46,353 nucleotides of DNA from positions 1 through 46,353 of the forward strand of contig JAWOFN010000123.1 of assembly GCA_046497505.1 (NCBI GenBank). The letters are read 5' to 3'. This document shows positions 14,845-36,875 of this stretch, in pieces. This DNA comes from JAWOFN01 sp046497505 [NCBI: bacterium] (GTDB taxonomy: Bacteria; Blakebacterota; Blakebacteria; Blakebacterales). The notes below the pieces were generated by a model. That model ran no database searches. It saw only the letters and a program-made list of their open reading frames with translations, and had not been told where the DNA came from. How positions within the stretch are numbered: the stretch's first letter is position 1; the number at the start of each line of letters is the position of its first letter. Made by a program: the position numbers and the translations under genes.

Positions 14845-14991
14845 CCTGCGTGGGGGCGGAGAAGATCATCGGGGTCGGCATCCTCTGGTTTTTCCTCTAT
14901 GCACGTCCCCCCCTCTCCTCAGCCCGGTTGCCCCTCCTTCCCGCATCGGCCATATTGGCCACGGTTCGGAACCTCTGAACGGAGCATCCGC

Positions 14992-16362
14992 GTGGCCTAC
15001 AAGGGTATCGCTCGAGACCTGCTGGACCGGCACGGCGCCGAGGTGGGAAGCCGCGTCCTGCTGCACTCCTCCAAGGGTGTCTACGACGGCATCATCATGC
15101 CCCGCAGCGAGCTGGGGGACGAGCATCACGTCATCATGAAGCTCGCCAACGGGTACAACGTGGGCGTCCGGGTGGACGGCTCGGAGACGATCGAGGTCCA
15201 GCGGGAGCGGAAGGACGTCGGATCGTATCAGGCCAGGGCCCCCGAGTTCGACCCGGATCGGCCCACCTTCTCCATCCTCCACACCGGCGGCACCATCGCC
15301 AGCCGTGTGGACTACAAGACCGGCGGTGTGGTCCCCGCCTTCACCCCCGACGAGATCCTGCAGCTCTTCCCCGAGCTGGAGGAGATCGGGAACTTCCGGG
15401 CCCGCATGGTCTCGAACATGTTCAGCGAGGACATCGAGTACGAGCACATCATCAACCTGGCGAAGGGGATCGAGGAGGAGATCGAGAAGGGGACCCGGGG
15501 CGTGGTCATCACCCACGGCACCGACACCATGCACATCTCCAGCGCCGCCCTCTCCTTCGTGGCCCAGGGCCTCCCCATCCCCGCCGTCTTCGTGGGGAGT
15601 CAGCGCTCCAGCGACCGTGGGTCCAGCGACGCCAAGATGAACCTGATGTGCGCCGCCCGCTTCGCCACACAGGCCGATTTCGCTGGCGTGGGCCTCTGCA
15701 TGCACGAGGCGATGGACGATATCTCCTGCCTGGTGCACGAAGGTACCAAGGTCAAGAAGATGCACACATCCCGGCGCGACTCCTTCCGGAGCATCAACCA
15801 GCACCCCTACGCCAGGGTGTGGCCGGACGGGCGGCACGAGTTCCTCAGGGAGGACCGGCCCCGCCGCGACCCGGGCCGGGATCCCTCCTTCTTCTACGAC
15901 TTCGAGCAGAAAGTGGTGCTGCTGAAGAGCTACTGCGGCTTCCACCCCGAACTGATCCGTTTCGCCCACGAGAAGGAGTACCGGGGGATCGTCCTGGAGG
16001 GGACCGGCCTGGGACACATCCCGGTGAACGATTTGGACGCCTACACCGCCCCCCACCCCGAGACGCTGAAGGCCCTGGCGGACTTCATCGACGACGGGGG
16101 CGTGGCGGTGATGACCAGCGCCTGCATGTTCGGCCGCATCAACATGAACGTCTACAGCACCGGACGCTACCTGCAGGACATCGGGGTGATCCCCGGGGGC
16201 GACATGCTGAGCGAGGTGGCCACCGTGAAGCTGAAGTGGGTGCTGGGCCAGACCCGCGACCCGGAGGAGGCCGAGGAGATGATGGTCCGCTCCTACGCGG
16301 GTGAGATCACCGAACGTACCCGCTCCGATGTCTACTTCCCCCAGTTCGGGAAGGAGGCGTGA
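14992..16362 (+). CDS. gatD: Glu-tRNA(Gln) amidotransferase subunit D (archaeal type)
   Basis: A 456-residue L-asparaginase-like subunit that releases ammonia from an amide donor for GatE. After an N-terminal small barrel ('GSRVLLHSSKGVYDGIIMPR'), the asparaginase core has 'ILHTGGTIASR' (T98, T101), 'ITHGTDTMHIS' (T177, D178) and the lysine in 'GTKVKKMHTSRRDSFR' (K256), matching the Thr-Thr-Asp-Lys set. The N-terminal extension and the 'KMHTSRRD' motif separate GatD from plain asparaginases. GTG 14992 (GGAG upstream) is preferred over ATG 14899, which adds 31 unlike residues. Its stop shares one base with the gatE start, so translation is coupled. GatDE is known as the archaeal Gln-tRNA(Gln)-forming enzyme, so a bacterial copy is unusual. 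Confidence 0.93.
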   Translation: MAYKGIARDLLDRHGAEVGSRVLLHSSKGVYDGIIMPRSELGDEHHVIMKLANGYNVGVRVDGSETIEVQRERKDVGSYQARAPEFDPDRPTFSILHTGGTIASRVDYKTGGVVPAFTPDEILQLFPELEEIGNFRARMVSNMFSEDIEYEHIINLAKGIEEEIEKGTRGVVITHGTDTMHISSAALSFVAQGLPIPAVFVGSQRSSDRGSSDAKMNLMCAARFATQADFAGVGLCMHEAMDDISCLVHEGTKVKKMHTSRRDSFRSINQHPYARVWPDGRHEFLREDRPRRDPGRDPSFFYDFEQKVVLLKSYCGFHPELIRFAHEKEYRGIVLEGTGLGHIPVNDLDAYTAPHPETLKALADFIDDGGVAVMTSACMFGRINMNVYSTGRYLQDIGVIPGGDMLSEVATVKLKWVLGQTRDPEEAEEMMVRSYAGEITERTRSDVYFPQFGKEA

Positions 16363-18239
16363 TGACCGCCCCCCTCGACTGGGAGGAGATCGAGTTCCGG
16401 GGCGGGATCGAGATCCACCAGCAGCTCGATACCCGCAAGCTCTTCTGCGAGTGTCCCACCGGGGTCCGGAGCGAGGAGCCCGACCTCACCACCACGCGCC
16501 GGCTCCATGCCGTGGCCAGCGAGATGGGTGAGTACGACCCGGCCGCCCTCCATGAGGCCCGCAGGGCCCGCACCTTCCACTACCAGTCCTACTTCGACTC
16601 GGTATGCCTGGTCGAGCTGGACGAGGAACCCCCCCACCCGGTGAACAGGGAGGCCCTGGAGATCTGTGTCCAGGCCGGGCTCATGCTGGACGCCCGGATG
16701 GTGGACGAGATCCAGGTCATGCGGAAGACGGTCATCGACGGCTCCAACACCGCCGGATTCCAGCGCACCATGCTCGTGGCCACCGACGGCGTGGTGGAGA
16801 CCTCCGAGGGCCCCGTGAACCTGATGTACTTCTGCCTGGAGGAAGACGCCGCACGGATCATGCACGCCGGGGACCAGGAGGTGGTCTACCGCCTGGACCG
16901 GCTGGGTATCCCGCTGCTGGAGATCGTCACCGGACCGGTCTTCATCAGCCCCGCCCAGGGGGGCGAGGTGGCGGACAGGCTGGGCCACCTGGTGCGATCC
17001 CTGAACGTGCGGAGGGGTATCGGCAGCATCCGCCAGGACGTGAACGTCTCCACGAAGTACGGGACCCGCATAGAGATCAAGGGCGTGCAGCGGCACCGGA
17101 TGGTACCCGCCATCATGGACTGCGAGGCGCGCCGGCAGGTGAACCTCTGGCGGATCGCCGAGGGACTGAACAGCCGGATAGACCCCTTCGAGGCCTCCGA
17201 CCTGGCGGGACGGACCGCCGACCTCACCCGCCTGTTCGAGCGGACGGAGGTGAAGCCCCTGCGTGGGCGCCTGGAGCGGGGAGACGTGGTCATCGCCATC
17301 GGGGTCCCCGGCTTCCGCGGGCTCTTCGGGACCGAGCTCTGTCCCGGCAAGCGCCTGGGCACCGAGATGAAGGAACAGGTCCTCACCCTGGGTATACGGG
17401 GGATCATCCACTCCGACGAGTCGCGGCGTGACCTGGGCTTCCGGGAGGACGAATGGGAGGCGGTCCGCTCCGAGCTGGGAGTGGGGGAAGAGGACGCCTT
17501 CCTGCTCTTCGCCGCTCCCCCTTCCCTGGTCGATAAGGCACTGGAGAAGCTGCACCCCCGCCTGGCCCACTGCTTCCTGGGTGTGCCCAAGGAGAGCCGC
17601 CGGGCAATGGGGGACGGCAACAGCCAGTACATGCGTCCCCTGCCGGGGGAGGCCCGGATGTACCCGGAGACCGACATCCCCCCGGTGGTACTGAGCCGGG
17701 CCTACCTCGAGGAGGTCCGCGGGGAGCTCCCGGAGATCCTGGAGGAGAAGCTGGAACGGCTGACCGAGCGCTTCGCCCTTCCCCTGCACGACCTGAGGAA
17801 GATCGCCGGCTACGCGGACGTGCTGGAGCGGGCGGCCGGGGAGATGGACCTCGATCCCTCCTGGACATTCAACGTCCTGGCGAGCAATGTGACCGACGTG
17901 CGGCGCCGCACAGGGGTCGAACCCTCCCCGGAGGACCTCGACGTCCTCTTCCGGCTGGTGGCCCGCAGGGGACTCTGCCGGGAGGCGGTGCTCCCCGTGC
18001 TGGAGGAGATGGCCGGGGGCAGTACCCCGGAGGAGGCCGCCGAGCCGTATCTCGAGACCGAGGTGGATCTCCAGGAGGAGGTCCGTCGGGTCGTCGCCGA
18101 GAACGGGGAATACGCGGAGCACCCGAAACGCTTCGAGATCCTCATGGGCCCCCTGATGGAACGGCTCCGGGGGAAGGTAGAAGGTGCCCGGGCCGCCCGG
18201 GCCCTCCGGGAAGAACTGGAGCAGGCGGCGGCGCGCTGA
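16362..18239 (+). CDS. gatE: Glu-tRNA(Gln) amidotransferase subunit E (archaeal type)
   Basis: A 625-residue subunit that binds Glu-tRNA(Gln), activates the glutamyl group with ATP and amidates it with ammonia supplied by GatD. The N-terminal kinase-like GatB/E core opens with 'GGIEIHQQLDTRKLFCECP' and continues with 'RKTVIDGSNTAGFQRTMLV' and 'RLGIPLLEIVTGP'. Residues about 275-425 form the AspRS-like (GAD) insertion that marks GatE rather than GatB. 'GNSQYMRPLPGEARMYPETD' returns to the core, and the C-terminal 130 residues form the YqeY-like tRNA-binding tail. AAGGAGG at 16351-16357 precedes ATG 16362. Together with gatD this is a complete heterodimer; no gatA, gatB or gatC is present in the window. 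Confidence 0.95.
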   Translation: MTAPLDWEEIEFRGGIEIHQQLDTRKLFCECPTGVRSEEPDLTTTRRLHAVASEMGEYDPAALHEARRARTFHYQSYFDSVCLVELDEEPPHPVNREALEICVQAGLMLDARMVDEIQVMRKTVIDGSNTAGFQRTMLVATDGVVETSEGPVNLMYFCLEEDAARIMHAGDQEVVYRLDRLGIPLLEIVTGPVFISPAQGGEVADRLGHLVRSLNVRRGIGSIRQDVNVSTKYGTRIEIKGVQRHRMVPAIMDCEARRQVNLWRIAEGLNSRIDPFEASDLAGRTADLTRLFERTEVKPLRGRLERGDVVIAIGVPGFRGLFGTELCPGKRLGTEMKEQVLTLGIRGIIHSDESRRDLGFREDEWEAVRSELGVGEEDAFLLFAAPPSLVDKALEKLHPRLAHCFLGVPKESRRAMGDGNSQYMRPLPGEARMYPETDIPPVVLSRAYLEEVRGELPEILEEKLERLTERFALPLHDLRKIAGYADVLERAAGEMDLDPSWTFNVLASNVTDVRRRTGVEPSPEDLDVLFRLVARRGLCREAVLPVLEEMAGGSTPEEAAEPYLETEVDLQEEVRRVVAENGEYAEHPKRFEILMGPLMERLRGKVEGARAARALREELEQAAAR

Positions 18240-18284: not shown

Positions 18285-18435
18285 ATGCCGAGAACATCAT
18301 CGAGCGTGCTGCTCTCCTCCCTCCTGCTCGTACCGCTGCTCGCGGGGTGCGGAGGGGGAGGACATGGAAACGATCCGCGCCCTCGGTGAACGGGTGTATC
18401 CCGCCTACCAGGACGTGGAGTCCATCTTCGACTGA
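18285..18435 (+). CDS. tiny lipoprotein, probably frameshifted
   Basis: ATG 18285 begins a clear lipoprotein signal, 'VLLSSLLLVPLLAGCGG', with lipobox cysteine C22. As written, this frame stops at 18389 after 34 residues. A different frame then reads 'EDMETIRALGERVYPAYQD' and 'VESIFD' before TGA 18433-18435. Removing one G from the G5 run at 18354-18358 would join them into a 49-residue lipoprotein. Small size and position 14 bases before the fusion gene suggest an accessory of that gene or an entericidin-like peptide, but no family is recognised. Confidence 0.45.
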
Positions 18436-18449
18436 CGGGGAGAGGGGTC

Positions 18450-21400
18450 TTGGCGGATACCGAGCAGGGACTGGCGAGGAAGCTGGACGAGCTGGAGGAG
18501 GCCCTGGGGTCCGGGGCCCCCTCCCCCGAACGGGCGGCCGCCCTTCTGGACGAGGCGGAGGCACTCGTACAGGAAGCAGACTTCGAGGCGGTCCGCGCCG
18601 ACGAGACCCGGCGGCACCGCTGGGAGCGCTACCTGGACCTGACCCGTCTCAGCCCCTTCCTGAAGGCACTGGGATCCCCCGATGCGCGGGAACGGTGGGC
18701 GGAGACCACCTTCCCGGTGCTCCGGGGGATCGACTTCGGCCTGAGGGGGCTCTTCCTCCAGCGGGTCGAGCGCCACCCGGAACGCACCTTCCTGCAGGAG
18801 ATGGAGGGACGCACCCCCCAGCGCTGGAGCTACGAACAGGTGTGGCGGCGGGCCGTCTCCCTCGCCGCCCTCTTCTACCGGGCGGCCGAAGGCCCCCCTC
18901 GGGTGGCGCTCTTCGCCGAGAACCGCCTCGACGGTGCCGTGAGCGACCTCGCCTGCCTGACCCACGGGATCCTGGTCACCCCCCTCAGCACCCACCTGGA
19001 CCATGAGGCCCTCACATGGATCTTCGACCGCCTGGGGATCACCGTGGCCGTGGCGGACCTGCCGGAGCGGCTTGAGATGCTCCGGGATATCCAGGAGGAG
19101 GTGGAGACCCCCTTCACTCCCTTCCTCATCCAGCCCCAGCGCCGGCGGCGCATGACGGAGGTCCGGATCCTGGAGGAGGAGCTGGCCCGTCTCGATCCTC
19201 CCGAGGTGGCCGCGATCCTCGAGGATCGCACGCGTCCGGCGGTGGACGACGATGCCACCGTGCTCTTCACCTCCGGCAGCACGGGAGAGCAGAAGGGCGT
19301 GGTCTTCACCGACTTCAACATGCTGAGCAAGCGCTTCGCCCGGGCCGCCGCCCTCCCCGATGTGGGCGAGGAGGAGTCCCTGGTGGCCTACCTCCCCCTC
19401 TACCACACCTTCGGGCGCTACCTGGAGCTGCAGGGGATGCTCTTCTGGGGAGGGACCTACACCTTCACGGGAAGCACCAGTGCCGACAGGCTCTTCGGTC
19501 TCATCGCCGACCTCCATCCCACCGGGCTCATCAGCGTCCCGGCCCGCTGGGCCCAGCTCCACGAGCGCTGCCTGGAGCAGATGAGCGGCGAGAGAGCCCC
19601 GGAGAAGCGCGAGGAGCGATTCCGGGAGGTGACGGGCGGACGCCTGCGATGGGGACTCTCCGCAGCCGGATACCAGGAGCCTGCGGTCTTCAACTTCTTC
19701 CACCGGCACGGCGTCGAGATGTGCAGCGGCTTCGGCATGACCGAGGCCACCGGGGGGGTCACCATGACCCCGCCCGGGGCGTACGAGGAGGATACGGTGG
19801 GCCTCCCCCTGCCGGGCGCCCATATCCGCCTCACCGAGCGGGGGGAACTCCAGGTCACCGGGCCCTATGCGGCCCGCTACCTCGATCCGGACGAGGGACG
19901 CACCGTCCAGGAGGGGGAGACGCGCTGGATCGCCACCGGCGACCTCTTCGTGGAGCGGGAGAGCGGATACCTGGAGATCGTCGACCGGATCAAGGACATC
20001 TACAAGAACAGCCGGGGGCAGACCATCGCCCCCCTGAGGGTCGAACGGCTCTTCGACGGCGTGCCCGGCATCAAGCGGACCTTTTTGGTGGGGGATGGTC
20101 GGGACTACAACGTCCTCCTCATCGTGCCCGACCCCCAGGACCCCGTCCTCACCGGTTCGGGACAGAGCGAAGCGGACCGCGAGTACTTCCACCGCATCGT
20201 GGCCGCCGCGAACCAGGAACTCGCGCCCTACGAGCGGGTGGTCAACTTCTCCGTGCTGGACCGGGACTTCGAGAAGGAGCGGGGGGAACTCACACCCAAG
20301 GGGTCCTACCGCCGGAAGCGGATCGAGGAACACTTCAGCGAGGTCATCGAGCCGCTCTACGAGCGCACCGCCGAGGAGATGGAGGTGGGCCCGTGGCGGG
20401 TGCGGGTCCCCAGATGGTTCTTCCGCAACCTCAGCATCCTCGAGGACGACATCCATCCCGAGGAGGACGCCCTGTACAACCCCCGCTCGAAGGTGCGTCT
20501 GAGGGTGCGCCCCGTCGGCGAGGGCGAGGTCCAGGTCGGCGACCTGGTATACCGGGTGGAGGGGGATGTGGTCGACCTGGGCCTCTTCGCCCGGCAGCCC
20601 CACCTCTGGCTGGGGAACCCCTCGCTGGTGGCCTTCTCACCCTGCCGGGAGGACTGGGACATCCCCCTGGAAGGTGTGGACCGGCAGGTCCGCATCCCCT
20701 GGCGTGAGGAGGAGCAGGACCCCGCTCCGGCGGCCCTGACCGACGCCCCGCGCCTGGACACCCGGCTGGCCTCCCTCCACCGTCTCTTCGTGCGGGCACT
20801 CTTCGGACCCGCACAGGACGCCCTGTCGGCCATCGACCGCCTGGAGCAGGAACTGGTGGACGCCTCCCTCCGGGTGGCCGACGCCATCCGCCGCCGGCTG
20901 GAGGCCCTGGCCCGGCACCCGGTCCTGGAGGTCCGCTGTCTCGCCTACCGGGTCCTCCTGCTGGACGAGCCGGTCATGGACTACAACAAGGTGCTTCCCA
21001 CCTTCATCGCCTCCGGTCTCCCCTTCCTGAGCCGGGAGAGCATCGAATCGATCGCCCAGGCGGACCTGGAACAGAGCAGGCTGGAGGCCTTCCGGAAGAG
21101 GCTCCACACCTATCGCCGCCAGCTGGACTGGCCCACCGACGAGAAGACCCGGGACCTCTTCCGCGACATCTTCGCCCTGCTGGAGGACTTCGCCCGCTAC
21201 CACCCGGGATATTACGGCACCATACGGAGTGAGCTGATCTCCTGGGCCCTCCACGACGCGGACCCCGACCTGGCCCGGGCGGCCAGGGACCACTTCGGAC
21301 GCCTGGGCACCTGGTTCGAGGAGCGCATCGCCCAGCGCTCGGAACGGTTCCGCTCTCCGGCCTGGACGGGCAAGCTCGTCTTCCAGGAGGGGCTGGGGAC

Positions 21401-23078
21401 CGGGGAGATCGAGACTCTGAGGGAGGTCCTGGTGGGGACCCCCTTCCTGACCGAGTCGATCATGCTGGCCTTCGACCGCCCCGGATTCGACCTCCACGAC
21501 GTCCCGGAAGGGGGCATCTGGATCAGCAGGATCCTGAGTCTCAAGCAGCACCAGCTCTACCGGGTGTGCGTCAACACCACGCAGGGACAGCACTACGACC
21601 TGCTCATCGTGCTGCGTACCGACCTGGACCGGACCTCCATCCAGGAGACGAACTACTGGATGATCGCCCTCCACGGCCACCCCTATGGACCGCCCGTGGT
21701 CCCCCAGTTCGGCTCCAGCCGGGCGGAACTCGGCGCCTTCAGCCTCCAGTACCTCGGAGAACTCACCGTGTGGGAACGCATCCGGGAGTTCAGCGGCTGG
21801 AGGGACGAGGACTCCTCCCGGCCGGCCCGGGTGGACTGGAGGACCCTCTTCGTCAAGGCGATGTCCGCTTTCTTCACCGGCTGGAAGAACAGCGACGGGC
21901 GCATCATCCCGGGGACGGTCGCTCCCAGCAACGTGGTGGTCCCGGAACCGGACTACCGGGAAGGCACCAGCATCCTCAGCCTTGCCGGCTGGCGACGGTA
22001 CGACGGACCCGTGAGCCTGGTGGAGCCGCTGGTGCTGAACTTCTACCGGCAGACGGTGAGCCACTATCCCCGCACGAAGGAGAGGCTGGAACCGGGCTGG
22101 ATCTTCGACGGGGCGGTGGAGGCCCTCGGGATCCCCGGTGCACGCCGATTCCTCACCGAACTCCAGGGTGAGCTGAGCTACCGCACCATTCCCTGCGACA
22201 TCGAGGAGTTCTCCGATACGCTCGACCGCTACCTGGAGGAACTGGGCAGCGCCTACCACCCCCCCCTCGCCCTCCGCTGCGCCGTGGAACGCTACCATGA
22301 CTGGCAGCAGATCAACCCTCAGGCCACCGACCGGGCACGGGGCGACCTGGTGGCCGAACTCCATCTCCTCTACCGGCTGGACCGCCACCCCGATATCGCC
22401 CGCTACCACCTCTACCGTCACACCTACTTCGCCGGCTCCGACGAGGCCATCACGGGAACCCTCGACCAGCTCATGGACCGCATGTTCCGGAACCCGGACC
22501 GCCGTCCCACCCAGATGGTCGAACTGAGCGACCTGCAGGCGGCCATAACCTCACCGGAGGACCGCCTCGTCTTCACCAAGCTGGTCTTCCCCGCCGGGGA
22601 GCCGGAGCACCCCCTTGAGGTGCTCTCCACCGGGGAGGAGGCCCGGAAGGAGGTGGTGGTCCAGACCCACATCACCGATAAGCTGGGTGATGTCTATACC
22701 GTCCGCACCACCACCGACCCCGCCGAGGTGGGACTCCTCTACCGTATCTTCATCCGCTCGGGGTATCCCATCGCCCTGGCCGAGGGGGCCCGCTATCTGC
22801 TGGTCATCGACGACCAGGAGCAGATCGTGGGCGGGCTCCAGTACCGGATCGAGGAGGGGGACGTGGCCCAGGTGGACGGACTCCTGGTCACCCATCCACT
22901 CACCGACCGGGGGATCAGCGGCAACCTGCTGGAGGACTTCTGTGCCCGCATGGAGAGCCAGGGGATCCACGTGGTGAAGACCTACTACCACTTACAGCAG
23001 TTCTTCCTCCATCACGGTTTCCAGGTCCACAAGCGGTGGGGCGGGCTGGTCCGCTTCCTCGGGGAGGGTGAGGCATGA
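18450..23078 (+). CDS. acyl-CoA synthetase - unknown domain - GNAT acetyltransferase fusion
   Basis: A 1542-residue protein starting at TTG 18450 with a GGGGAGAGGGG Shine-Dalgarno. Residues about 95-630 are an AMP-forming acyl-CoA synthetase with all core motifs: ATP loop 'FTSGSTGEQKGVV' (273-285), 'GFGMTEATGG' (428-437), 'TGDLF' (496-500), hinge 'DRIKDIYKNSRG' (512-523) and catalytic lysine K617 in 'TPKGSYRRKR'. Residues about 640-1390 form no family I know; segments such as 'YHPGYYGTIRSELISWAL' and 'DGRIIPGTVAPSNVVVPEPD' look conserved, and a kinase-like fold is a guess. The last 150 residues resemble a GNAT acyltransferase ('VDGLLVTHPLTDRGISGNLL'), so it may activate an acyl chain and transfer it to an acceptor. 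It overlaps the NhaC gene by four bases. Confidence 0.85.
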   Translation: MADTEQGLARKLDELEEALGSGAPSPERAAALLDEAEALVQEADFEAVRADETRRHRWERYLDLTRLSPFLKALGSPDARERWAETTFPVLRGIDFGLRGLFLQRVERHPERTFLQEMEGRTPQRWSYEQVWRRAVSLAALFYRAAEGPPRVALFAENRLDGAVSDLACLTHGILVTPLSTHLDHEALTWIFDRLGITVAVADLPERLEMLRDIQEEVETPFTPFLIQPQRRRRMTEVRILEEELARLDPPEVAAILEDRTRPAVDDDATVLFTSGSTGEQKGVVFTDFNMLSKRFARAAALPDVGEEESLVAYLPLYHTFGRYLELQGMLFWGGTYTFTGSTSADRLFGLIADLHPTGLISVPARWAQLHERCLEQMSGERAPEKREERFREVTGGRLRWGLSAAGYQEPAVFNFFHRHGVEMCSGFGMTEATGGVTMTPPGAYEEDTVGLPLPGAHIRLTERGELQVTGPYAARYLDPDEGRTVQEGETRWIATGDLFVERESGYLEIVDRIKDIYKNSRGQTIAPLRVERLFDGVPGIKRTFLVGDGRDYNVLLIVPDPQDPVLTGSGQSEADREYFHRIVAAANQELAPYERVVNFSVLDRDFEKERGELTPKGSYRRKRIEEHFSEVIEPLYERTAEEMEVGPWRVRVPRWFFRNLSILEDDIHPEEDALYNPRSKVRLRVRPVGEGEVQVGDLVYRVEGDVVDLGLFARQPHLWLGNPSLVAFSPCREDWDIPLEGVDRQVRIPWREEEQDPAPAALTDAPRLDTRLASLHRLFVRALFGPAQDALSAIDRLEQELVDASLRVADAIRRRLEALARHPVLEVRCLAYRVLLLDEPVMDYNKVLPTFIASGLPFLSRESIESIAQADLEQSRLEAFRKRLHTYRRQLDWPTDEKTRDLFRDIFALLEDFARYHPGYYGTIRSELISWALHDADPDLARAARDHFGRLGTWFEERIAQRSERFRSPAWTGKLVFQEGLGTGEIETLREVLVGTPFLTESIMLAFDRPGFDLHDVPEGGIWISRILSLKQHQLYRVCVNTTQGQHYDLLIVLRTDLDRTSIQETNYWMIALHGHPYGPPVVPQFGSSRAELGAFSLQYLGELTVWERIREFSGWRDEDSSRPARVDWRTLFVKAMSAFFTGWKNSDGRIIPGTVAPSNVVVPEPDYREGTSILSLAGWRRYDGPVSLVEPLVLNFYRQTVSHYPRTKERLEPGWIFDGAVEALGIPGARRFLTELQGELSYRTIPCDIEEFSDTLDRYLEELGSAYHPPLALRCAVERYHDWQQINPQATDRARGDLVAELHLLYRLDRHPDIARYHLYRHTYFAGSDEAITGTLDQLMDRMFRNPDRRPTQMVELSDLQAAITSPEDRLVFTKLVFPAGEPEHPLEVLSTGEEARKEVVVQTHITDKLGDVYTVRTTTDPAEVGLLYRIFIRSGYPIALAEGARYLLVIDDQEQIVGGLQYRIEEGDVAQVDGLLVTHPLTDRGISGNLLEDFCARMESQGIHVVKTYYHLQQFFLHHGFQVHKRWGGLVRFLGEGEA

Positions 23079-24592
23079 GCCGGCGGACCACGCTCCTCTT
23101 CGTCGCCGGGGTCCTGGCCGCGGGGGTCCTCCTCCGCCTGACCACCGACCTCTTCTCCCCCGCCGCCGGGGGCACCGACCATGGGGTATGGTCGCTGGTG
23201 CCCGCGGTGCTGGCCATCGCGCTCTGTTTCTGGACGCGGGAGGTGATCACCGCCCTCTTCGCGGGGATCGCCGCGGGCGGCCTGATAAGCGGTCAGTTCA
23301 ACATCATCCAGCACTACTTCTTCCCCGCCCTGGGCACCGAGTCCTTCGCCCAGATCCTCCTCGTCTACCTCTGGTGTCTGGGCGGTCTCATCGGGATCTG
23401 GACCCGGACGGGAGGAGCGGTGCACTTCGCCCGCTGGCTGGGGGACCGGATCGTCCGGGGACCGCGCAGCGCCAGGGTCTTCACCGTGCTCCTGGGCTCC
23501 CTCTTCCACCAGGGGGGGACCGTGAGCGCCATCCTCACCGGTTCCACCGCCCGACCCGTCTGTGACGAGGAAGGCCTCTCTCACGAGGAGACTTCCTTCC
23601 TCGTGGACGCTACCGCCTCGCCCATCGCCACGCTGATACCCTTCAACGTCTGGCCCGCCTACGTGGGGGCCTTCGCCGTGGGGACCGCACCCTTCCTGGC
23701 AGACATCGAATCGGCCAAGGCCCTCTTCTACGCCGCCGTCCCCTTCAACTTCATCGGCATCCTCGCGCTCCTCACCGCCCTCCTCTTCGCCCTGGAGATA
23801 CGTCCCTTCCCCTTCGGCCGGATGCGGGAGGCCGCCCGCAGGGCGCGGGAGACCGGGGCCCTGGACCGGGAGGGCTCGAAGCCGATGGCCTCCCGGGAGC
23901 TGAACGAGCTGAAGGTGCCCCCCGGCTACCGGACGGGGAACTCGGACTTCATCGTGCCGATCGGCACCCTCCTGGCTGTGGCCATCCTGCCCTGGATCCT
24001 CCCCCGCCTCACCGGGGATGCTTTCGGCAGCGTGGCCATCAGCGAAGCCTTCCTCCTGGCCATCCTGGCGGCCATGGTGACGGCGGCCGTGAAGGGGATG
24101 GCCCTGGAGGAGATCATCGAGGGGTTCCTGGACGGGGTGAAGGGGGTGTCGATCGGGGCCGTGATCCTCGCCCTGGCCGTCACGCTGGGCGAGGTGTCGG
24201 GCGCACTGGGAGCCGCTGACTTCCTGATCCGCACCACCGCGGGGCGCATCGTACCCTTCCTGCTCCCCGCCCTGCTCCTGACCGTCTCCCTTGCCGTCGC
24301 CTTCAGTATCGGATCCTCCTGGAGCATGTACGCGGTGGTGGTGCCCATCGCCCTGCCGCTGGCGTGGGCCCTCCTCCCCGAACCGGTCTTCCTCACCCTC
24401 TGCTACGCGGCGGTCATCGGCGGAGGGGCGTGGGGTGACTGGTGCTCTCCCATCAGCGACACCACCATCCTCTCCAGCCTCTCCACCGGGTCGGACCTCA
24501 TGGACCACGCTTCCAGCCAGCTTCCCATCGGGATACTGGTGGCCGCGGTGAGCCTCATCCTGTATGCGGCGGCGGGTCTGGCGGTCACCTGA
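23075..24592 (+). CDS. NhaC-family Na+/H+ antiporter
   Basis: A 505-residue membrane protein with about 12 hydrophobic segments. The NhaC-like features are 'LVPAVLAIALCFWTREVITALFAGI' at the N-terminus, 'LGSLFHQGGTVSAILTGSTARPVCD' with its charged half-helix, and 'GAWGDWCSPISDTTILSS' near residue 460, the family's ion-site signature. These carriers exchange sodium for protons, or sodium-malate for proton-lactate in the MleN branch. ATG 23075 overlaps the end of the fusion gene (ATGA), so expression is translationally coupled to it. It converges on the next gene with an 11-base gap and no room for a separate terminator. Confidence 0.85.
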   Translation: MSRRTTLLFVAGVLAAGVLLRLTTDLFSPAAGGTDHGVWSLVPAVLAIALCFWTREVITALFAGIAAGGLISGQFNIIQHYFFPALGTESFAQILLVYLWCLGGLIGIWTRTGGAVHFARWLGDRIVRGPRSARVFTVLLGSLFHQGGTVSAILTGSTARPVCDEEGLSHEETSFLVDATASPIATLIPFNVWPAYVGAFAVGTAPFLADIESAKALFYAAVPFNFIGILALLTALLFALEIRPFPFGRMREAARRARETGALDREGSKPMASRELNELKVPPGYRTGNSDFIVPIGTLLAVAILPWILPRLTGDAFGSVAISEAFLLAILAAMVTAAVKGMALEEIIEGFLDGVKGVSIGAVILALAVTLGEVSGALGAADFLIRTTAGRIVPFLLPALLLTVSLAVAFSIGSSWSMYAVVVPIALPLAWALLPEPVFLTLCYAAVIGGGAWGDWCSPISDTTILSSLSTGSDLMDHASSQLPIGILVAAVSLILYAAAGLAVT

Positions 24593-25546: not shown

Positions 25547-26641
25547 ATGCTGACGTACGATGCACTGGCCGGACTGGACGAAGATCTTGAGGACCGGAAG
25601 GTCCTCAGCGTCTATCTTCGCGGGGGCACCGAATCGTTCGGCGAGCAGAAGGCGTGGAAAGTGGAGCTCAAGAACGAACTGGCCCGCCTGGAGGAGGAGA
25701 TGGAGGGGGCCGGCCGCGTCGAGCGGGAGGAGTTCGAGGCCGCTGCCAGGCAGCTGCGTGTCCTGTTGGAGAGCATGCCCGGTCAGCCTCCGCAGGGGGG
25801 CTGGGTGGCCTTCATCACATCGGAGGAGACCGTCCACGCCGACGCGGTACCCGCTCCCATGCCCACCCGGGCGATCTGGGGCGATGGGATCCACATCGCC
25901 CCCTACGTCCGCGTCCTGAAGCAGAACCGCCCCCTGGTGGCGGCGCTCCTCGACCGGGACCGCGTCCGCTTCTTCACCTACCGCCAGGGTGAGCTGACCG
26001 AGGAGACCGCCCTCCACTCCGACACCTACCTGGGCGACCTCACCGACTCCAACGAGTCGCGGCGGGCGGCGGGCCATACCGGCCAGCGGGGCAGCACCGG
26101 CACCGACAAGGCACAGCGCTATCTCGAGGTGGAACACGAGCGGATGATGCGCACCGCGACCGAGAAGCTCAAGGAACTCGCCGGGCGCTACGGATGGATC
26201 CTCCTCGGCGGCATCCCCGCGGTCATCAAGGAGCAGTCCCAGGCCCTGGGTGAGCAGTACGGACCGAGGGTGACGGAGATGCCCTCCCTCCAGATCGAGG
26301 ACCCCGATCCGAAGGTGGAGGAGGCGGCCAGGGAATCGGCCCACGAGCTGCGGCAGTTGGCCCAGCGGCGGGGCATATCCGAGGCGGCGGACGAGGCTCG
26401 CTCCGGGGGGCGCGGCGCCCTCGGTCCCGGCGACGTGGGCAAGGCCCTCGAGCGGGGTCAGGTGGAACACCTCTACCTGGGGCGCCGCTTCATCCTGGAA
26501 GAGAGCGAGGCGGCCGACGTTGCGGTACGCAGGGCCCTCCGACAGAATTCCTACCTGGAGGAGGTCTCGGGGCAGGCGGAGGAGACCCTGGACGAGGAGG
26601 CTTCCGGCATCGCGGCACGGCTCCGCTTCGTGGTGGGCTGA
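25547..26641 (+). CDS. bacterial archaeo-eukaryotic release-factor-like protein (baeRF)
   Basis: A 364-residue soluble protein resembling bacterial homologues of eRF1/Vms1. It starts 'LSVYLRGGTESFGEQKAWKV', the beta-strand plus helix typical of baeRF N-termini. It then has an RNase H-like middle region ('RPLVAALLDRDRVRFFTYRQGEL', residues about 125-148) and a C-terminal L7Ae-like part ('GDVGKALERGQVEHLYLGRRFIL', residues about 290-315). Family members are proposed to act on stalled ribosomes or to cleave peptidyl-tRNA, but most are untested. No GGQ tripeptide is visible in the expected region; the only similar sequence, 'HTGQRGSTGTDKA', may be its counterpart. Start ATG 25547 has GGTGGAG five bases upstream. 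Confidence 0.7.
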   Translation: MLTYDALAGLDEDLEDRKVLSVYLRGGTESFGEQKAWKVELKNELARLEEEMEGAGRVEREEFEAAARQLRVLLESMPGQPPQGGWVAFITSEETVHADAVPAPMPTRAIWGDGIHIAPYVRVLKQNRPLVAALLDRDRVRFFTYRQGELTEETALHSDTYLGDLTDSNESRRAAGHTGQRGSTGTDKAQRYLEVEHERMMRTATEKLKELAGRYGWILLGGIPAVIKEQSQALGEQYGPRVTEMPSLQIEDPDPKVEEAARESAHELRQLAQRRGISEAADEARSGGRGALGPGDVGKALERGQVEHLYLGRRFILEESEAADVAVRRALRQNSYLEEVSGQAEETLDEEASGIAARLRFVVG

Positions 26642-35441: not shown

Positions 35442-36875
35442 TCAGCTCCCCGGAAGGGTCTGGTCCTCCCGGACCCTGGGCGCGATACCGATCCCGGTGG
35501 CACCGTACAGGAGGGCGAAGAGGAACCCGGTGTAGTTCATCACCGCCCACGGGATGTACGCGGTGGTGGACACATCCAGCGTGGCGGCCATGAACACCCC
35601 CGCCGCGCTCCACGGGACCAGGGGTACGATCACCGTCCCGCTGTCCTCGGTGGTCCGGCTCAGGTTCTTCGCTGCCAGGTCCCGTTTCTCGAACTCCTCG
35701 GCGTACAGTTCCCCCGGAACGATGATGGAGAGGTAGCTCGACCCGGTCACCAGGGCGGTGGTGATCCCGGTGGCCACCGCGGCCCCCACCAGACGGAAGG
35801 TGGACCGGATGTGGTCCCGCAGCGACTCGAGGATCCGGTCCAGCAGCCCGCACCGGGTCATGATCCCCGCGAAACCGAAGGCGCAGAAGACGATCAGCGT
35901 CACTTCCATCATGACCAGCATCCCGCCCCGAGCCAGCAGCCCGTCCACCTCCGCCACGCCCGTGGCGGGCTGATAGCCCTCCACGGAGGCCGCCGCCACC
36001 TCCACGGCGGGCATCCCCTGCATGAAGACCGCCAGCAGGGCGGCGATGAAGCTGGCCAGGAGCATGCCGGGCACGGTCGGGAGCTTGCGGAAAGCGAAGT
36101 AGAGCACGACGGCCAGGGGGAGCAGGAGCAGCAGGCTGAACCGGAACGAGTCCCGGAGCGCTCCCTGCAGGCTGCTCACGTCGGGCATGGCGGCCGGCAC
36201 CGAGCCCAGTCCCACCACCAGATAGACCAGCAGCCCCAGCAGCCAGGCGGGACCGGTGGTCCAGAGCATGTGGCGGATGTGGTCGAAGAGGTTGGCCCGG
36301 GCGATGACCGGCGCCAGGTTGGTCGTGTCGCTGAAGGGGCTCAGCTTGTCCCCGAAGTAGGCGCCCGAGACGATGGCACCCGCAGCGGCCCCCAGGGGGA
36401 TCCCCAGGCCGCCCGCCACACCCATCAGCGCCACCCCCACGGTGCCCACCGTCCCCCAGGAGGTGCCGGTGGAGATCGAGACGATCGAACAGATCACGCA
36501 GGCGGTGACCAGGAAGAAGCGGGGCGAGATGAGTTCCAGGCCCCAGCTCACCAGCATGGGGATGGTCCCGGCGGCGATCCAGGTGGCGATGAGGGCCCCC
36601 ACGGTGATCATGATGAGGATGGCCGGCATCGCCTTCCCCAGCCCCTGGACGACCCCTTCCTCCATCTCCTTCCACGACCACCCCAGCCGGCGGGCCACCA
36701 GGCCGGCGGTCACCGCCGCCCCGATGAGGACCACCTCGATCCGATAGCCCAGCCAGGCGTAGCCCACTCCCAGGAGCAGGGCCATCACCACCAGGGGGGT
36801 GAGGGCCTCGGTGAGGCTCGGCCTGCGGGGCGCGGCCGCCTGAGGGGTCTCCGATGCCGGGCGATCGTCTTCCAT
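35442..36875 (-). CDS. NhaC-family Na+/H+ antiporter (second copy)
   Basis: A 477-residue membrane protein. 'SWGTVGTVGVALMGVAGGLGI' and 'GAYFGDKLSPFSDTTNLAP' near residues 150-190 are strong NhaC signatures, and a matching 'TGSSYLSIIVPGELYAEEF' occurs near residue 390. It is closer to the classical NhaC layout than the copy at 23075-24592; the two are clearly diverged. It should extrude sodium in exchange for protons. It is divergent from the five-repeat lipoprotein gene. Confidence 0.93.
   Translation of the reverse strand: MEDDRPASETPQAAAPRRPSLTEALTPLVVMALLLGVGYAWLGYRIEVVLIGAAVTAGLVARRLGWSWKEMEEGVVQGLGKAMPAILIMITVGALIATWIAAGTIPMLVSWGLELISPRFFLVTACVICSIVSISTGTSWGTVGTVGVALMGVAGGLGIPLGAAAGAIVSGAYFGDKLSPFSDTTNLAPVIARANLFDHIRHMLWTTGPAWLLGLLVYLVVGLGSVPAAMPDVSSLQGALRDSFRFSLLLLLPLAVVLYFAFRKLPTVPGMLLASFIAALLAVFMQGMPAVEVAAASVEGYQPATGVAEVDGLLARGGMLVMMEVTLIVFCAFGFAGIMTRCGLLDRILESLRDHIRSTFRLVGAAVATGITTALVTGSSYLSIIVPGELYAEEFEKRDLAAKNLSRTTEDSGTVIVPLVPWSAAGVFMAATLDVSTTAYIPWAVMNYTGFLFALLYGATGIGIAPRVREDQTLPGS

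What the first reader, a model, noticed from the sequence alone, without database searches (positions are those of the whole stretch)
18450..23078. Giant fusion: acyl-CoA synthetase, 750-residue unknown region, GNAT
The ends are recognisable and the synthetase motifs are intact, but the roughly 750-residue middle has no family I recognise and contains highly patterned segments, with one resembling a kinase catalytic loop ('IIPGTVAPSNVVVPE'). An enzyme that activates a fatty acid and carries an acyltransferase on the same chain suggests a self-contained acylation machine. Coupling to NhaC and a preceding tiny lipoprotein makes it the best candidate here for an undescribed system.
Basis: partly seen in the sequence, partly recalled or inferred. 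Interest (0 to 1): 0.8.

Follow-up and report, generated by a model that had tools for sequence, protein, structure and literature searches.

The report
Acyl-CoA synthetase carrying its own acyltransferase
A very large microbial enzyme really does join a fatty-acid-activating domain, a long stretch of unnamed domains and an acyl-transfer domain on one chain, and the same chain is found intact in several distant groups, in one of them nearly always in front of a citrate-type synthase gene, which hints that it makes or controls acyl-CoA.

Summary
The fusion is real: one 1542-residue ORF (18450-23078). It is no assembly artefact: 32 relatives of the same layout, intact, come from six phylum-level groups, five of them on contigs of 4.6-6.7 Mb. 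Every synthetase (ANL) motif tested is intact in the window, and the catalytic lysine K617 in 33 of 33. The C-terminal GNAT is genuine by family profile, but in the window and two near relatives it lacks the usual P-loop arginine. The 750-residue middle matches no named family: a beta-rich piece, a HEAT-like piece, and a kinase-like piece linked to a lone kinase-like ORF (hhalign 95%) but without conserved catalytic residues. All domains evolve under constraint in 11 pairs tested. The antiporter and lipoprotein link is local to the window. In the large phylum a homocitrate-synthase-type gene follows directly (23 of 25 loci; citrate synthase in one, contig end in one). I read it as an acyl-CoA synthetase with an on-board lysine acyltransferase, probably self-regulating (0.35); a self-contained acylation machine is the near-equal rival (0.30). 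No activity was tested. It looks undescribed in the open papers searched: a new layout of known parts around an unnamed middle. Side finding: archaeal-type GatDE in an apparent bacterium.

The parts
18450..23078 (+). giant gene, 1542 aa: ANL synthetase - unnamed middle - GNAT
   Evidence: 32 full-length relatives
18450..18740 (+). N-terminal leader, residues 1-97, least conserved part
18759..19853 (+). AMP-binding (ANL N-domain), residues 104-468
   Evidence: E=1e-50; motifs
20010..20369 (+). ANL C-terminal lid (AMP-binding_C_3), residues 521-640
   Evidence: E=7e-11
20298..20300 (+). codon of K617, the A10 catalytic lysine (invariant, 33 of 33)
   Evidence: A10 naming and role recalled
20370..20723 (+). 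beta-rich unnamed domain, residues 641-758 (GDL-Y, LW-GN conserved)
   Evidence: boundaries and secondary structure by eye
20724..21332 (+). helical, HEAT-like region, residues 759-961
   Evidence: HEAT_2 hits in 5 of 33 members, best E 0.003; boundaries by eye
21333..22409 (+). kinase-like region without conserved kinase catalytic residues, residues 962-1320
   Evidence: hhalign 95.2% to ORF L177:1432-2424:-; residue counts
22410..22661 (+). linker, residues 1321-1404
   Evidence: boundaries by eye
22662..23072 (+). GNAT domain, residues 1405-1541; P-loop here T-x-x-G-x-S instead of R/Q-x-x-G-x-G/A
18285..18389 (+). 34-aa lipobox ORF (LLAGC); local neighbour, not shown to belong
   Evidence: no such ORF upstream of the other 33 copies with room
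23075..24592 (+). Na+/H+ antiporter family protein (PF03553), start overlaps the giant gene by 4 bp; local neighbour
   Evidence: no relative in the other 37 loci

Best explanation
Shown: a conserved single-chain protein family made of an AMP-forming acyl-activating (ANL) domain with its catalytic motifs kept, an unnamed middle (beta piece, HEAT-like piece, kinase-like piece without conserved catalytic residues) and a C-terminal GNAT. Inferred: the ANL part turns a carboxylic acid, probably a fatty acid, into acyl-AMP and acyl-CoA; the GNAT uses acyl- or acetyl-CoA to modify a protein lysine, in the first place the synthetase's own catalytic lysine K617, so that acyl-CoA supply is switched off when acetyl-CoA is plentiful. 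The middle holds the two ends together and the kinase-like piece, if it binds anything, acts as a ligand sensor rather than a kinase. In the large phylum it would feed or tune the citrate/homocitrate-type synthase encoded directly downstream.
For: Ten of 11 ANL motif positions checked are invariant in 33 of 33 sequences, K617 among them; the 11th (K282) is kept in 31. The GNAT profile's best PDB match is a histone acetyltransferase, tGCN5, 3e-10, the next group at 9e-5. Many AMP-forming ligases are acylated at a conserved lysine (PMC11619455: start of abstract, one passage; PMC11255334: start of abstract); that K617 is the same position is recalled. A synthetase-like domain plus GNAT on one chain is the layout of Pat-type lysine acetyltransferases, where the synthetase part is thought to sense acetyl-CoA (PMC8556138, passages). 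The downstream gene is a homocitrate-synthase-type enzyme, -4 to +18 bp, in 23 of 25 large-phylum loci, and a citrate synthase about 260 bp away in one more; the 5 of these 23 proteins that were tested pass the TIGR02146 cut-off. Kinase catalytic residues are not conserved, which suits a sensor. All domains under constraint in 11 pairs.
Against: K617 is needed for adenylation anyway (recalled), so its conservation does not show that it is modified. The window protein and its relatives in G001 and G002 lack the P-loop arginine, so the GNAT may be weak or dead there. The homocitrate-synthase-type neighbour is absent in the window (searched whole) and in the loci of the other five groups as far as flanks reach. 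Best PDB matches of the ANL part are carboxylic acid reductases; the acid it activates is unknown. No usable structure model (pLDDT 37 and 43). None of the selection pairs includes the window. Nothing was assayed.
Confidence: 0.35

Rival explanations
1. Self-contained acylation machine: the ANL domain makes acyl-AMP/acyl-CoA and the GNAT passes that acyl group to an amine of a metabolite, lipid or partner protein; the middle binds the acceptor.
For: Middle-only search: of 29 strong hits 28 lie in open frames of at least 1544 residues and one is cut by its contig end, so the parts were not seen apart. Precedent for adenylation plus amine acylation by one enzyme: Ebony (PMC6070697, passages). 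Arylalkylamine N-acyltransferases (GNATs, recalled) can use long-chain acyl-CoA (same paper, passages). Acyl-CoA ligase gene directly downstream in 5 of 5 genomes of one group.
Against: No carrier-domain serine motif in any of 33 sequences and no carrier-domain Pfam hit. P-loop arginine missing in the window, G001 and G002. No acceptor or product suggested by a shared neighbour.
Confidence: 0.3
2. A plain acyl-CoA synthetase with structural appendages: GNAT and kinase-like parts are inactive scaffolds or ligand-binding modules.
For: Kinase residues not conserved; GNAT P-loop arginine absent in 3 of 33, the window among them.
Against: P-loop arginine kept in 30 of 33 and glycine in 33 of 33; GNAT dN/dS at most 0.39 in 11 pairs.
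Confidence: 0.2
3. Part of an aminoadipate/lysine-type or alkyl-citrate-type pathway: substrate or acceptor comes from the neighbouring (homo)citrate synthase.
For: Homocitrate-synthase-type gene directly downstream in 23 of 25 large-phylum loci; citrate synthase upstream in 3 of these (L071, L076, L078) and downstream in L092; an aconitase end further upstream in L071.
Against: No other aminoadipate-pathway gene was recognised nearby (only part of the neighbours were searched in libraries); link confined to one phylum; HMGL-family enzymes can also be Re-citrate synthases (recalled), so the name is not proof.
Confidence: 0.08
4. Assembly or gene-calling artefact.
For: None found for the window. 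One relative (L014) has a broken frame near a contig end.
Against: Same fusion intact in 32 other genomes, five on contigs of 4.6-6.7 Mb.
Confidence: 0.01

Closest known systems
Type I/II GNAT protein acetyltransferases (Pat/PatZ/PatA)
   Same: synthetase-type domain and GNAT on one large chain; acetyl-CoA link
   Different: theirs is an inactive NDP-forming synthetase domain (PMC8556138, passages); here an AMP-forming ANL domain with kept motifs plus a 750-residue unnamed middle
Ebony (beta-alanyl amine synthase)
   Same: adenylation and amine acylation by one enzyme (PMC6070697, passages)
   Different: Ebony passes the acyl group to a phosphopantetheine (PMC6070697); its carrier domain and GNAT-like end are recalled; no carrier motif here
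Aas (acyl-[ACP]-phospholipid O-acyltransferase)
   Same: acyl-activating domain fused to an acyltransferase
   Different: acyltransferase there is PlsC-type (recalled); here GNAT. NCBIfam Aas models match only the ANL part, far below cut-off
Carboxylic acid reductase / FadD11-type ligases
   Same: among the closest named ANL relatives
   Different: no carrier or reductase domain found; middle and GNAT instead

Membership tests
ANL (AMP-forming acyl-activating) enzymes | AMP-binding domain above curated cut-off | tested here: met
   173 bits against 29.9; 8 of 8 members match
ANL (AMP-forming acyl-activating) enzymes | P-loop, A5 Glu, A7 Asp, A8 Arg, A10 Lys kept (motif names recalled) | tested here: met
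   33 of 33 at ten positions; P-loop Lys282 in 31 of 33, window included
ANL (AMP-forming acyl-activating) enzymes | acyl-AMP/acyl-CoA formation | not testable with these tools
   needs assay
GNAT acyltransferases | fold/profile match | tested here: met
   family profile to tGCN5 3e-10; 7 of 8 members hit Acetyltransf_1 at E<=10, best 6e-11; the window protein alone is below cut-off
GNAT acyltransferases | P-loop R/Q-x-x-G-x-G/A (as given in PMC8556138) | tested here: not met
   window has T-x-x-G-x-S; strict motif in 17 of 33, R at first place in 30 of 33
[quoted passage not shown]
   no such Pfam hit in 8 members; AMP-binding instead
NRPS-like amide synthase (Ebony) | carrier (PCP) domain with Ser motif | tested here: not met
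   0 of 33; no Pfam carrier hit
Carboxylic acid reductase | carrier and thioester reductase domains | tested here: not met
   PDB and NCBIfam reductase matches stop at about residue 647 (capped lists); no such Pfam hit in 8 members
Protein kinase-like fold (middle region) | sequence link to a kinase-like protein | tested here: inconclusive
   hhalign 95.2% to the L177 ORF, which shows kinase motifs by eye but has no Pfam hit itself; no match to an APH profile
Protein kinase-like fold (middle region) | catalytic Asp and Asn conserved | tested here: not met
   Asp 9 of 33, Asn 7 of 33
NhaC antiporter (neighbour) | TIGR00931 above cut-off | tested here: not met
   20.4 bits against 370; PF03553 family met

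The most novel reading that the evidence does not exclude
A carrier-free bacterial amide synthase: one chain adenylates a carboxylic acid and its own GNAT condenses it with an amine, the kinase-like and HEAT-like middle serving as the acceptor-binding part, with the acceptor or acid drawn in one phylum from the adjacent homocitrate/citrate-type synthase (an aminoadipate-like or alkyl-citrate-like product). The GNAT would then stand in a sixth layout beside the five listed bacterial GNAT types.
Probability: 0.12. Interest if true: 0.8.

Novelty: new variant of a known kind. Interest (0 to 1): 0.5.

Why it matters
A conserved 1500-residue protein with an active-looking AMP-forming synthetase and a GNAT on one chain gives a clean test of whether acyl-CoA synthetases can carry their own lysine-acylation switch, or whether activation and transfer can be joined without a carrier domain. 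Its unnamed middle is a new domain set for family libraries, and its near-constant pairing with a homocitrate-synthase-type gene in one phylum gives a concrete metabolic lead.

Tried and rejected
Relatives by peptide patterns in genome contigs and viral contigs: none for the giant protein. Plasmids by tblastn: none. PADLOC: no hit for the protein or its middle. Aminoglycoside-phosphotransferase (APH) profile against the kinase-like region: no match. In one search only 16 of the 30 fetched domains were used (11 lacked the motif I filtered on, 3 were not extracted): probability 2.1% for the kinase-like region, 5.9% for the linker stretch, controls up to 1.3%. In one search all 30: 0.5-0.6%, controls up to 1.0%. 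AlphaFold2 without an alignment: unusable, pLDDT 37 and 43, so no fold search was run. Antiporter, GatD, GatE, abhydrolase, baeRF and threonine synthase as conserved neighbours: no relative in the other 37 loci (DNA-level repeat for the first four). The lipoprotein query was void, since that ORF set held only ORFs of 90 aa or more; one search repeated it at DNA level (no hit) and as a lipobox scan (1 of 34 loci, the window). The weak middle hit in G019 is a glutamyl-tRNA-synthetase-like ORF (by eye): chance. Literature: searches gave no paper and three unrelated ones by their listing; subscription journals are not covered.

Full report
What is there. The ORF 18450-23078 (+) encodes 1542 residues from a TTG start with no internal stop. 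Pfam finds AMP-binding at 104-468 and AMP-binding_C_3 at 521-640; the GNAT is seen only weakly in this protein alone. NCBIfam's best rows for the ANL part are long-chain-fatty-acid ligases, FadD11 and carboxylic acid reductase, all far below cut-off (25 of 82 rows shown), and the best PDB rows are carboxylic acid reductases (60 of 92 shown). Residues 640-1440 match nothing of note in Pfam or, with the GNAT, in the PDB beyond weak GNAT rows.

It is a conserved family. No whole genome is held for the window. A peptide scan of genome contigs with the middle found nothing; a scan with part of the neighbouring GatE gave two MAGs titled 'bacterium', and both genomes carry full-length relatives of the giant protein (54 and 47% identity over about 1525 residues). 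Profile searches then found it in 7 of 290 relatives of G001, G001 itself and the incomplete G003 included (8 further matches there were weak and short), in 2 of 4, 1 of 6, 2 of 7, 5 of 5 and 1 of 2 genomes of five small phylum-level groups (some copies cut by contig ends), and in 25 of 193 genomes of one large phylum (26 matched; one was GNAT only). A middle-only profile matched 31 of 384 relatives of G183: 29 were the fusion (28 in frames of at least 1544 residues, one cut by a contig end; several already known), one a 336-aa frame in G103, one weak. Thirty-two relatives have complete ORFs over 1500 residues and with the window make the 33 rows used below; L014, with a broken frame at a contig end, and four contig-cut copies were left out. 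Five of the 32 lie on contigs of 4.6-6.7 Mb, so the fusion is not an assembly artefact. The tree puts the window next to G001 (long branches meet, so deep joins are unsure).

Condition of the domains. Of eleven ANL positions checked, ten are invariant in 33 of 33, including K617; the P-loop lysine is kept in 31, the window included. In the GNAT the P-loop glycine is invariant and arginine stands at the first place in 30 of 33; the window (T) and the copies of G001 and G002 (M, M) depart, and the strict R/Q-x-x-G-x-G/A motif is met by 17 of 33 because serine often takes the last place. The GNAT family profile matches Tetrahymena GCN5 at 3e-10. Per site, synonymous changes exceed non-synonymous ones in every domain of 11 pairs tested; whole-gene dN/dS is 0.11-0.31, the N-terminal leader highest at up to 0.72. 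None of these pairs includes the window.

The middle. With 33 sequences Pfam shows HEAT_2 in 5 of 33 members, best 0.003, and otherwise single stray hits; NCBIfam gives only stray single-member hits (best 0.0015) and the PDB nothing below 0.1. By eye that ORF has a beta-3 lysine, a hinge, a D-x-x-P-x-N-like loop and DLH, but Pfam and the PDB have no match to it at E up to 10, NCBIfam none at 1e-20 (the only cut-off tried), and neither it nor the kinase-like region matches an APH profile. In the giant family the catalytic Asp place is D in 9, E in 11 and others in 13 of 33, and the Asn place N in 7 of 33. So: probably a kinase-like fold, not a working kinase. Structure models from single sequences were useless.

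Surroundings. In the window the gene follows GatD-GatE and the lipobox ORF and overlaps a PF03553 antiporter by 4 bp. No relative of the antiporter, GatD, GatE or the abhydrolase lies in the other 37 loci (flanks 0 to 8.8 kb), and only the window among 34 loci with room has a lipobox ORF within 400 bp upstream. Instead groups have partners of their own. In the large phylum a homocitrate-synthase-type gene starts -4 to +18 bp downstream in 23 of 25 loci; the 24th (L092) has a citrate synthase about 260 bp downstream and the 25th (L098) is cut by its contig end. The five of these 23 proteins that were tested pass the TIGR02146 cut-off. Three of the 23 also have a citrate synthase upstream. In the G214 group an acyl-CoA ligase follows in 5 of 5 genomes (one of them checked against the libraries). 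In the G001 group hgcA lies upstream in both carriers, hgcA and hgcB of G001 passing their NCBIfam cut-offs.

How it most likely works. The activating half is very probably an AMP-forming acyl-CoA synthetase, by motif. The closest PDB match of the GNAT is a histone acetyltransferase; GNATs acylate the conserved lysine of many AMP-forming ligases (PMC11619455: start of abstract and one passage; PMC11255334: start of abstract in a search listing); and the pairing in one phylum is with a synthase of the kind that consumes acetyl-CoA. I therefore favour a synthetase with an on-board acylation switch (0.35) narrowly over direct acyl transfer to an amine (0.30). Steps shown: architecture, conservation, motif state, gene pairing. 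Steps inferred: substrate, lysine acylation, role of the middle.

Compared with the known. A review of bacterial GNAT types (PMC8556138, passages) lists five layouts; types I and II join a GNAT to an inactive NDP-forming synthetase domain. This family joins it to an AMP-forming one with kept motifs and adds a middle of no named family, so I call it a new variant, not a member. It lacks the carrier step described for Ebony (PMC6070697, passages). I found no paper on the fusion, which cover open-licence PMC papers only.

Side finding. GatD and GatE pass their archaeal-type cut-offs, and GatE is over the cut-off in 26 of 280 relatives of a genome titled 'bacterium' (27 matched at 1e-60; of 14 control genomes only four rang, all archaea; the tool does not state the domain of each relative). 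A 2022 review says GatDE is now found only in archaea (PMC9499178, passages).

Noticed in passing
window 14899-18239: Archaeal-type GatD (488.7 bits, cut-off 324) and GatE (635.5, cut-off 456) directly upstream in an apparently bacterial genome; GatE over cut-off in 26 of 280 relatives of G001, against a review statement that GatDE is found only in archaea (PMC9499178, passages).
   Followed up: partly
L012:11916-13309 (-): hgcA-hgcB mercury-methylation genes directly upstream of the giant gene in G001; an hgcA relative (79% identity) also upstream in G003, L014.
   Followed up: partly
L177:1432-2424 (-): Lone 330-aa ORF with kinase-type motifs by eye and no Pfam or PDB match; remote relative of the giant protein's middle.
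   Followed up: partly
L032:6216-8006 (+): 596-aa protein with a Rossmann-like start (by eye), no Pfam hit at 1e-3 or NCBIfam hit at 1e-5; relatives in L033, L094 and L097 of the same group (the tblastn table lists only L032 and L094).
   Followed up: no
window 35442-36875 (-): Second PF03553 Na+/H+ antiporter-family gene in the same window (214 bits).
   Followed up: no
window 25547-26641 (+): baeRF_family10 protein (47 bits, cut-off 27), relative of the MSMEG_1130 ribosome hibernation factor but far below that cut-off (88 against 480 bits).
   Followed up: no
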